This document shows, piece after piece, positions 34,884 to 36,601 of a stretch of 36,601 nt of DNA (position 1 is its first letter; the number at the start of each line of letters is the position of its first letter). The translations under genes and the position numbers were made by a program. The stretch is taken from positions 1 through 36,601 of the forward strand of contig NZ_SGUC01000032.1 in NCBI RefSeq assembly GCF_005435165.1, read 5' to 3'. Source of the stretch: Halorubrum sp. GN11_10-6_MGM (lineage in GTDB: Archaea > Halobacteriota > Halobacteria > Halobacteriales > Haloferacaceae). The notes below the pieces were generated by a model. It was not told the DNA's origin and searched no databases. It saw nothing but the letters and a program-made list of their open reading frames with translations.

Positions 34884-35744
34884 ATGATCGTACCCGGGTC
34901 CAGCTCGCAGCAGCTCGCGGCCGCGCTCGCCGACGAGACGGGCCGGGCGCTCGCCACCCCGACCTACGAACGCTTTCCGGACGGGGAGGGGCTCGCCGCG
35001 GTGCCCGACTTCGACGCCGACGAGGCCGTGATCGTCGCCGCGACCGACTCCGACGAGGCGTGGGTCGAACTGCTCCAGCTCCAGGACGCCGTCCGCGAGG
35101 CCGGCGCGACGGACGTGACCACCGTGATCCCGTACATGGGGTACGCCCGACAGGACGAGTCCTTCGGCGAGGGGCAGCCGGTCTCGGCCCGCGCGATGGC
35201 GAAAGCGATCTCGACCGGGACCGACCGCGTCCGACTCGTCAACCCCCACGAGGCGGCCGTCGCCGACTTCTTCGATGTCCCGGTCGAGGCGGTCGATGCC
35301 GCCGGCGTCCTCGCCGACCCGCTCCCCGCCGACCTCGACGACCCGCTCTTCCTCGCGCCCGACGAGGGGGCAATCGACGCGGCCGCCACCGTCCGGGACG
35401 CCTACGGCGCCGGCGAGACGGACTACTTCGAGAAGCACCGCGACCGCGAGACGGGCGCCGTCGCGGTCTCGCCCTCGGACGCCCCCGTTTCAGACCGCGA
35501 CGTGGTCGTCGTCGACGACATCATCGCCACCGGCTCCACGATGAGCGAGTCGGTCGCCGTGCTGGCCGACCGCGGCGCCGCGCGGGTGTTCGCCGCCTGC
35601 GTCCACCCCGTCCTCGCGGCCAACGCGGTGACGAAGCTCCGCGCCGCCGGCGTCGACCGGATCGTCGGCAGCGACACCGTGGAGCGCGGCTGTAGCGTCG
35701 TCAGCGTCGCACCCGCCGTGGCCGACGCGCTGGCGGGGCGCTGA
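34884..35744 (+). CDS. prs: ribose-phosphate diphosphokinase (PRPP synthetase)
   Basis: Makes PRPP from ribose 5-phosphate and ATP for nucleotide, His and Trp synthesis. 286 residues, archaeal-length. Landmarks are the catalytic/flexible region PYMGYARQDESFGEGQPVSARAMAKAI (83-109), LVNPHEAAVADFF and the PRPP-binding loop VVVVDDIIATGSTM (207-220, Asp211-Asp212). The ATG is set by a GTTTAC box (about 34854-34859) some 27 nt upstream. Monocistronic. Confidence 0.97.
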   Translation: MIVPGSSSQQLAAALADETGRALATPTYERFPDGEGLAAVPDFDADEAVIVAATDSDEAWVELLQLQDAVREAGATDVTTVIPYMGYARQDESFGEGQPVSARAMAKAISTGTDRVRLVNPHEAAVADFFDVPVEAVDAAGVLADPLPADLDDPLFLAPDEGAIDAAATVRDAYGAGETDYFEKHRDRETGAVAVSPSDAPVSDRDVVVVDDIIATGSTMSESVAVLADRGAARVFAACVHPVLAANAVTKLRAAGVDRIVGSDTVERGCSVVSVAPAVADALAGR

Positions 35745-35753
35745 GCGGGACGG

Positions 35754-36326
35754 CTAGGCGTCGGTCCCGCCGTCGACGTTCCGAATTTCTTCGGCCGGGT
35801 TGCCCCCGACCACCGTCCGCGCCGGCACGTCGTCGACCACGACGGCGCCGGCCGCGACGACCGCGCCGTCGCCGACCGAGACGCCCGGCGTGAGGACCGC
35901 CCGCCCGCCGATCCAGACGTCGTCGCCCACTGTCACCGGGTCGCCGAACTCGCGGCCGGTCGCGCGCCCGTCGGGATCGATCGGGTGCGTCGCGGTGTAG
36001 GCGTGGACGCCCGGCCCGAGCAGGCAGTTCTCGCCGAACGCGATCGGCGCCATGTCGAGGAAGACGCAGCCGTAGTTCGCGAAGAACCCGTCACCGACGC
36101 CGACGTTGTACCCGTAGTCGCAGCGGACCGGTGGCTCGACGGTCGCGTCGCCCCCGACCTCACCGAACAGCTCTCGGAGGAGTCGGTCGCGGCGGTCGGC
36201 CTCGGCCGGGGCGGTGGCGTTGTACCGGCGGCAGCGGTCGCTCGCGCGCCGGCGCTCGGCGACCAGCTCCGGGGCCGTCGGGTCGTACGCCTCGCCGGCG
36301 AGCATCCGCTCCTTCTCGCGTCCCAT
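35754..36326 (-). CDS. hexapeptide-repeat sugar O-acyltransferase
   Basis: 190-residue left-handed beta-helix acetyltransferase, maltose O-acetyltransferase-like. It has the N-terminal MLAGEAYDPTAPELVAER helix segment, then repeats ending with GDDVWIGGRAVLTPGVSVGDGAVVAAGAVV, and the catalytic His114 in YTATHPID. Trimeric by family. It probably transfers acetyl groups to a sugar or nucleotide-sugar. It converges on prs with a 9-nt gap. Confidence 0.93.
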   Translation of the reverse strand: MGREKERMLAGEAYDPTAPELVAERRRASDRCRRYNATAPAEADRRDRLLRELFGEVGGDATVEPPVRCDYGYNVGVGDGFFANYGCVFLDMAPIAFGENCLLGPGVHAYTATHPIDPDGRATGREFGDPVTVGDDVWIGGRAVLTPGVSVGDGAVVAAGAVVVDDVPARTVVGGNPAEEIRNVDGGTDA

Positions 36327-36385: not shown

Positions 36386-36499
36386 TTTATAAGTCGAGTC
36401 TGGCACCAGACCAGCGGAGAACGCCTCCAAAGCCCCAGCCGCTCGGTTATAAATCGTTGACTGCGTCTGGCCGGCGAACGCCTCCAAAGCCCTAGCCGC
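36386..36499 (+). repeat. two direct repeats, each behind a TATA-like box
   Basis: A 24-nt core starting GAACGCCTCCAAAGCCC occurs at 36419-36442 and 36476-36499 with one mismatch. Each is preceded by a TATA-like box, TTTATAAG (36386-36393) and TTATAAA (36447-36453), about 29-33 nt before the core. No coding frame uses this region. It lies just 3' of the acyltransferase start on the opposite side and continues to the window edge. Confidence 0.75.
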
Positions 36500-36584
36500 G
36501 AGGACGGCGCACGCTCGCTGCGGTCCTCAGTCGCTCGTGCTGCTCGCTCCTTGCGGTCCTTGCGTCGCCTGCGCCGTCCTCGCG
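36497..36584. repeat. 15-bp perfect inverted repeat at the window edge
   Basis: CGCGAGGACGGCGCA (36497-36511) and its exact complement TGCGCCGTCCTCGCG (36570-36584) enclose 58 nt of GC-rich sequence. CAAAG and CTTTG further out also pair. The structure joins directly to the second TATA-preceded repeat. Confidence 0.85.
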
Positions 36585-36601
36585 ACTGCCCCTTTGAGTC
36601 C

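What the first reader, a model, noticed from the sequence alone, without database searches (positions are those of the whole stretch)
36386..36601. TATA-preceded tandem repeats running into a long inverted repeat
Two copies of a 24-nt core each lie about 30 nt behind a TATA-like box, so each could be transcribed from a similar promoter. A 15-bp perfect inverted repeat with 58-nt loop follows, and an outer CAAAG/CTTTG pair extends it. The end of the window reads ...CCCCTTTGAGTCC, a motif I recall as common in Halorubrum intergenic repeats. It may be a multicopy element that forms a structured RNA.
Basis: partly seen in the sequence, partly recalled or inferred. Interest (0 to 1): 0.5.

Follow-up and report, generated by a model that had tools for sequence, protein, structure and literature searches.

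The report
Many-copy DNA hairpin repeat in Halorubrum
The end of this window is the first part of a roughly 400-base repeated DNA element, found about a hundred times between genes of a salt-loving archaeon (by inference Halorubrum), whose paired arms change together in a way that fits folding of the DNA itself better than a conserved RNA.

Summary
The window is a whole contig that ends inside the element. Other copies show the rest: TATA-started units, hairpins I, II and III, and usually a closing TATA-like octamer. The genome has at least 101 places matching hairpin I, 89 of them at 60 bits or more. In 391 genomes of the class the exact end motif is multicopy only in this genus (44 of 46 have it, up to 173 copies; 16 of 345 others have 1-2). 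Arms covary mostly by double changes. In strand-neutral counts wobbles do not favour the TATA-driven strand, though one structure-biased count does. Copies prefer convergent gene junctions. I read it as an archaeal interspersed palindromic mosaic repeat kept at DNA level, working like bacterial REP/BIME but not a member. 'Multicopy Halorubrum element' was right; a forward structured RNA is not supported, a reverse one is open.

The parts
36386..36393 (+). TATA-like octamer of the first unit (TTTATAAG)
36415..36442 (+). Unit 1 core CGGAGAACGCCTCCAAAGCCCCAGCCGC (with a small GGAG/CTCC hairpin, by eye)
36447..36454 (+). TATA-like octamer of the second unit (TTATAAAT)
36472..36499 (+). Unit 2 core; its last part is the base of the left arm of hairpin I
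36485..36596 (+). Hairpin I: arms 36485-36514 and 36567-36596, perfect 15 bp 36497-36511/36570-36584, CAAAG/CTTTG closing pair with a C-rich internal loop
   Evidence: model R1 match G000:C127:36474-36601 at 129.4 bits; covariation of 28 other copies
36588..36601 (+). End motif of hairpin I (GCCCCTTTGAGTCC); hairpins II, III and the right octamer lie beyond the contig end and were seen only in other copies
35754..36326 (-). Neighbouring gene, maltose/sugar O-acetyltransferase family (not part of the element)

Best explanation
One copy, cut by the contig end, of a compound interspersed palindromic repeat: TATA-started units, three hairpins, and usually a closing TATA-like octamer. Shown: copy number, multicopy state by exact motif only in this genus, modular anatomy, covariation, intergenic placement. 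Inferred: the arms are kept complementary as DNA. Hairpins or cruciforms form when the duplex opens (replication, supercoiling between convergent genes; the AT-rich octamers in a GC-rich genome would ease opening), and arm-to-arm template switching plus loss of broken hairpins keeps them paired, so that many substitutions appear in pairs. Also inferred: copies are old, mostly inherited in place, exchange hairpin modules in place, and survive where they do not sit in promoters. The agent that first spread them is unknown.
For: Copies: 105 rows = 101 places in the own genome, a lower bound since 150 of 6856 candidates were scored. End motif: 44 of 46 genus genomes versus 16 of 345 others with 1-2; reversed-pattern control 2 hits in 391 genomes. 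Covariation in 28 copies: 21 of 33 pairs with double changes, 110 double-change cells, 4 one-sided standard cells, score 0.349 against 0.122 shuffled and at most 0.063 slid. Strand-neutral wobbles: fixed stem of hairpin I GT 36 / AC 37; model-aligned GT 26 / AC 29; Watson-Crick-majority columns of hairpin I GT 63 / AC 73; SRP RNA folded in sense has 18 columns with GT and 2 with AC. Placement: 36 model-supported copies in 773 kb, 0 inside predicted genes; junctions occupied: convergent 16/138, codirectional 18/431, divergent 2/137 (convergent versus codirectional p=0.003); codirectional copies point both ways, 11 and 7 (11 weaker rows, under 59 bits, dropped). Right octamer: 28 of 38 copies with an end motif (convergent 16/16, codirectional 11/21, divergent 1/1) against 8 of 342 element-free intergenic windows. 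Loss of hairpin I alone in L211, remnant in L218, absence in seven relatives (by eye). Inverted loops: L362 and L056 by script, 2 of 131 cores; L263, L365, L366 by eye. No two of 46 own copies above 96% in hairpin I, median 81%.
Against: With RNAalifold structures hairpin I cells give GT 160 / AC 61 on the forward fold and 185 / 30 on the reverse fold; the method favours G-U on whichever strand is folded, but this does not look strand-neutral by itself. Hairpins II+III folded on the reverse strand have 12 columns with GT and 2 with AC (58 and 6 cells), and hairpin II has 0 GT and 17 AC cells, as a reverse-strand RNA would show. The SRP control is weaker (GT 48 / AC 30; or 11 / 2), so that form of the test has modest power. 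In 7 ortholog pairs one-sided stem changes (16) outnumber compensated double ones (9; 6 other doubles). 'Further pair types' did not exceed shuffles (60 of 500 reached it). Convergent preference is not significant in the own genome alone (6/62 versus 9/214, p=0.11), and G011 and G027 copies are partly orthologous. Model R1 also hits 214 of 345 genomes outside the genus at lower scores, of which I looked at none; another outside copy, L119, looks complete. Two inverted loops lie at contig ends of a draft, where palindromes can be mis-assembled. No clean empty site or target duplication was found, so movement is not shown.
Confidence: 0.58

Rival explanations
1. A family of structured non-coding RNA genes, each transcribed from its TATA box (forward strand), with tandem units as extra promoters.
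For: TATA-to-GAAC distance of 27-31 nt fits a haloarchaeal promoter (recalled knowledge). Strong covariation. RNA folding of one copy from inside hairpin I on: z -4.0. Forward fold of hairpin I: 160 GT versus 61 AC cells. Intergenic TATA repeats of halovirus HF2 are promoters (PMC8707807, passages), though unlike in motif and with no phage match to the window's units.
Against: Strand-neutral counts are even. By columns the forward fold has 15 with GT and 18 with AC in hairpin I, 1 and 6 in hairpins II+III, against 18 and 2 for SRP RNA. No Rfam family for the element itself. Hairpin content differs at the same site in some ortholog pairs.
Confidence: 0.12
2. A reverse-strand RNA or 3'-UTR element: mRNAs reading into the repeat carry hairpins that protect their 3' ends.
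For: Reverse fold of hairpins II+III: 12 columns with GT, 2 with AC; hairpin II 0 GT and 17 AC cells read forward; location at gene 3' ends.
Against: Hairpin I reverse fold gives 21 columns with GT and 13 with AC, close to SRP antisense (17 and 11). Codirectional copies point both ways, 11 and 7.
Confidence: 0.12
3. A chromosomal DNA function selected as such: a protein-binding site or supercoil buffer between convergent genes, like some roles proposed for BIMEs.
For: Convergent preference. On the two smaller contigs of G027 no hit of 59 bits or more in 241.5 kb (one weak hit, 37.6 bits) against 11 in 200 kb of its large contig. Shared flanks: 8 of 12 G011 and 10 of 15 G027 anchors have both flanks at 500-850 bp from each other in the other genome (my count).
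Against: Motif number runs from 0 to 173 among genomes of the genus and the element is absent at the focal site in seven relatives, so no fixed set is needed. Loss of copies that hit promoters could produce the placement alone.
Confidence: 0.13
4. A recently active MITE or PATE moved by a known IS200/IS605-type transposase.
For: Copy-number variation and presence/absence between species; palindrome-bearing PATEs exist in Haloquadratum (PMC3119063, passages).
Against: Y1 transposase does not track copy number: none in G006, G193, G009, G011 (83, 82, 90, 72 motif copies), present in G347 and G369 (0 motif copies, one R1 hit each). No R1 hit in the fetched flanks of 6 Y1 genes (of about 100 matches) or of 18 TnpB-like genes of the own genome. 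No near-identical copies among 46.
Confidence: 0.05

Closest known systems
REP / BIME elements of bacteria with REP-associated tyrosine transposases (PMC2817692, passages read)
   Same: About 100 or more copies per genome, extragenic, palindromic with complementary changes, composite modules.
   Different: Archaeal; hairpins of about 45-110 nt instead of 20-40 bp (that figure: abstract start of PMC3733652, listing); three different hairpins in fixed order plus TATA-started units; no link to Y1 transposases found.
PATEs, MITEs and SMRs of Haloquadratum walsbyi (PMC3119063, passages read)
   Same: Haloarchaeal transposase-free repeats, some with palindromes, high copy; core deletion between short repeats resembles the hairpin I loss in L211.
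   Different: PATE palindromes are near-terminal and related to IS605 ends; here no hairpin I hit around 24 sampled IS200/IS605-type loci and no near-identical copies among 46.
ERIC-type enterobacterial repeats (recalled, not tested)
   Same: Long intergenic imperfect palindrome of unknown agent.
   Different: Different taxon; single palindrome; no TATA units (all recalled).
Intergenic repeats of halovirus HF2 (PMC8707807, passages read)
   Same: 56-58-bp TATA-bearing intergenic repeats in the haloarchaeal world.
   Different: Viral; motifs quoted in the paper differ; no phage record matched the window's units at E up to 1.

Membership tests
REP/BIME (RAYT-associated) | High-copy extragenic palindromes | tested here: met
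REP/BIME (RAYT-associated) | REP number follows the presence of a cognate Y1 (RAYT) transposase flanked by inverted copies | tested here: not met
   Y1_Tnp absent from several high-copy genomes and present in zero-motif ones; no R1 hit in the flanks of 6 fetched Y1 loci. The three own-genome Y1 matches lie on contigs C49, C190, C125, where one search lists no R1 match; the other Y1 matches were not examined.
REP/BIME (RAYT-associated) | Palindromes of 20-40 bp | tested here: not met
   Hairpin I spans about 110 nt
REP/BIME (RAYT-associated) | GTAG- or CGTC-type head | not tested
   no search made
PATE (IS605-derived) | Near-terminal palindromes shared with IS605-type transposons | tested here: inconclusive
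   0 R1 hits around 18 own TnpB-like and 6 Y1 loci, but only hairpin I was modelled
MITE | Terminal inverted repeats and target duplication | tested here: inconclusive
   TATA-like octamers on both sides but no clean empty site seen
Structured RNA family (forward strand) | Covariation with G-U in excess of A-C on the transcribed strand | tested here: inconclusive
   No excess in strand-neutral counts or by columns, but 160 GT / 61 AC cells with the forward RNAalifold structure
Structured RNA family (reverse strand) | Covariation with G-U in excess of A-C on the transcribed strand | tested here: inconclusive
   Hairpins II+III favour it, hairpin I less clearly
Structured RNA family | A transcript | not testable with these tools
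   no RNA-seq available
Known Rfam family | Match at gathering score | tested here: not met
   2.6 kb of the window, E up to 1: two weak matches below gathering score; 4 loci with full copies: only a neighbouring SRP RNA

The most novel reading that the evidence does not exclude
These chromosomes carry an archaeal hairpin-repeat system in which DNA hairpins, primed by AT-rich octamers, extrude in the cell and are continually rewritten: loops flip, arms are copied onto each other, and whole hairpins are swapped in place by a dedicated processing machinery acting between convergent genes.
Probability: 0.12. Interest if true: 0.75.

Novelty: new variant of a known kind. Interest (0 to 1): 0.5.

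Why it matters
If right, archaea have their own version of bacterial interspersed mosaic repeats, with about 100 natural replicas per genome in which arms tend to change together. That would make DNA hairpin extrusion and arm-to-arm correction open to measurement in an archaeon. Practically, 8 of 30 examined copies of this draft genome lie at contig ends, and strong covariation here need not mean RNA.

Tried and rejected
Rfam on 2.6 kb of the window gave two weak matches below gathering score; on four loci with full copies only a neighbouring SRP RNA gene. A viral-contig search with the neighbouring PRPP synthetase-like protein found no relative. Model R1 hits in 259 of 391 class genomes at E up to 1e-8 (45 of 46 in the genus, 214 of 345 outside; at most 8 candidates scored per genome) were set aside as a measure of spread because the exact end motif is at 0-2 outside the genus; but one outside locus, Halobellus captivus L119 5590-5840, looks complete, so some may be true relatives. 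36 viral contigs with the 17-nt motif gave 0 model hits. Plasmids: 5 records, best coverage 48%, identity 72-75%, among them one Halorubrum salinarum plasmid (44%, 72.1%); how many Halorubrum plasmids the collection holds was not determined. Phages: no match.

Counts corrected later: gene context with a loose 10-nt anchor gave 25 convergent, 24 codirectional, 2 divergent of 51 (Fisher), but 7 anchors fell inside predicted genes, all classed convergent; the model-based count is, where 11 of 47 rows (under 59 bits) were dropped. A first measure of the right octamer gave 8 of 52 with a looser end finder and a 40-nt window; the second gave 28 of 38, with 13 of 51 anchors lacking an end motif. A tRNA control for wobbles was too small and partly out of register, so SRP RNA was used. 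A plus-strand-only comparison of two genomes missed an inverted block and was redone. Spacing of the 92 forward copies of G152: CV 0.86; the reverse copies were mostly not listed.

Literature searches in the held library; among the titles and abstract starts listed I saw none that describes this repeat. Read in passages only: PMC2817692, PMC3119063, PMC8707807. Most subscription papers are not held.

Full report
What is there. The window is one entire contig of a 3.32-Mb, 200-contig assembly, so the element is cut at the contig end.

Anatomy from other copies. Reading and aligning 29 own-genome copies gives this order: TTTATAA-started units of about 57 nt (sometimes longer) in variable number, each with GAACACC and AAAGCCCCAGYCGC; hairpin I, ending CTGCCCCTTYGAGTCCC; a linker rich in CCGCACCGCA; hairpin II (CCTCACGCCTCCCCAGCCTCG ... 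CTCCCTCGCGCG); hairpin III (CTCGCGGCCGCC ... GGCGGCCGCTCG); an end near GCCACCGC; then often a TATA-like octamer. Before the core, 54 of 111 copies have an octamer within one mismatch, 40 of them at one offset. After the end, 28 of 38 copies with a recognisable end have one: convergent 16 of 16, codirectional 11 of 21, divergent 1 of 1, against 8 of 342 windows of element-free intergenic DNA; a first, looser measurement gave 8 of 52.

Numbers and spread. Model R1 gives 105 rows in the own genome, which are 101 places because four re-match on the other strand; 89 places score 60 bits or more (my count; 150 of 6856 candidates scored). The 15-nt end motif is present 41+44 times there and 92+81 times in G152, reversed pattern 0 in both. 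Of 391 genomes of the class, 44 of 46 in the genus have it (six have fewer than ten copies, two of these none), and 16 of 345 outside have one or two; the reversed pattern has 2 hits in all. R1 at E up to 1e-8 finds something in 50 of 52 genus genomes and in 214 of 345 outside genomes of the class sample at lower scores; the only outside locus I read, in Halobellus captivus, looks like a complete copy. Hits of 59 bits or more: 0 in 241.5 of the 244.6 kb of two smaller contigs of G027 (one weak hit, 37.6 bits) and 11 in 200 kb of its large contig; that the small contigs are plasmids is inferred from size.

DNA or RNA. In 28 own copies 21 of 33 pairs have double changes, 110 cells, against 4 one-sided standard cells; shuffles and slid versions fall far below on most measures, not on 'further pair types' (60 of 500 shuffles reach it). 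If a forward RNA were kept, G-U intermediates should exceed A-C. Strand-neutral counts in hairpin I are even: 36 and 37, 26 and 29, 63 and 73. With RNAalifold structures the cells are 160 and 61 on the forward fold, 185 and 30 on the reverse fold; SRP RNA of 30 genomes gives 420 and 2 in sense, 270 and 18 in antisense. By columns the forward fold of hairpin I has 15 with GT and 18 with AC, SRP RNA in sense 18 and 2. Restricted to Watson-Crick-majority columns SRP gives 48 and 30, or 11 and 2 where both strands agree, so that form is weak. Hairpins II and III lean to A-C on the forward strand, that is G-U on the reverse: 12 columns against 2 on the reverse fold. So the forward RNA is disfavoured though not excluded, a reverse-strand RNA is open, and a DNA-level cause is the simplest common reading.

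Turnover. At the window's own site (26 of the 30 fetched loci read) the full element is in G103 and G152, hairpin I alone is missing in G169, a decayed copy by eye is in G176, and a short spacer without it is in G147, G006, G206, G284, G224, G201 and G306; the rest have other DNA or another neighbour there. Between G011 and G027, 8 of 12 and 10 of 15 anchors have both flanks at similar distance in the other genome. In 7 matched pairs hairpin I identity runs from 0.74 to 1.00; in two pairs it is 0.87 and 0.77 while the upstream flank is 0.94 and 0.91. Over these pairs 88 stem positions are unchanged, 16 changed on one side, 9 are compensated doubles and 6 other doubles; in one of them the hairpin content is replaced outright (by eye), which inflates the one-sided count. 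No two of 46 own copies exceed 96% in hairpin I. A script on 131 distinct cores called 105 normal loops, 2 inverted (L362, L056) and 24 undecided; L263, L365 and L366 look inverted by eye. In L362 the right arm has also become the exact complement of the left. L365 and L366 lie at contig ends, so assembly error must be excluded.

Placement. With a simple codon-based gene caller, 36 model-supported copies lie outside predicted genes, at 16 of 138 convergent, 18 of 431 codirectional and 2 of 137 divergent junctions. The own genome alone is not significant (p=0.11), and G011 and G027 share sites. This fits either a role at 3' ends or loss of copies that hit promoters.

Agent. Y1 transposases do not follow copy number, and no R1 hit lies in the fetched flanks of 6 Y1 genes or of the 18 TnpB-like genes of the own genome. 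The spreading agent is unknown.

Verdict. A real repeat, multicopy across one genus, whose kind (interspersed palindromic mosaic) is known from bacteria but whose build I did not find in the held papers searched.

Noticed in passing
L009 1057-1368 (G000:C41): The SRP RNA gene lies about 130 bp upstream of a repeat copy in the own genome; in G224 and G363 the listed coordinates also place a motif copy within about 300 bp of the SRP gene.
   Followed up: partly
L367 (G000:C134 23500-24181): The contig ends in an inverted copy of its own left arm and unit, which looks like a hairpin snap-back assembly artefact (by eye).
   Followed up: partly
L023, and G011/G027 pairs: An extra hairpin module occurs in the linker of some copies, so further modules exist (by eye).
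   Followed up: no
L209, L210, L212, L214, L218, beside the acetyltransferase gene: At the window's site several relatives have another gene, perhaps a LysE-type exporter (by eye only), instead of the repeat.
   Followed up: no
34884-35744: Ribose-phosphate pyrophosphokinase-like gene upstream (Pfam Pribosyltran_N).
   Followed up: no
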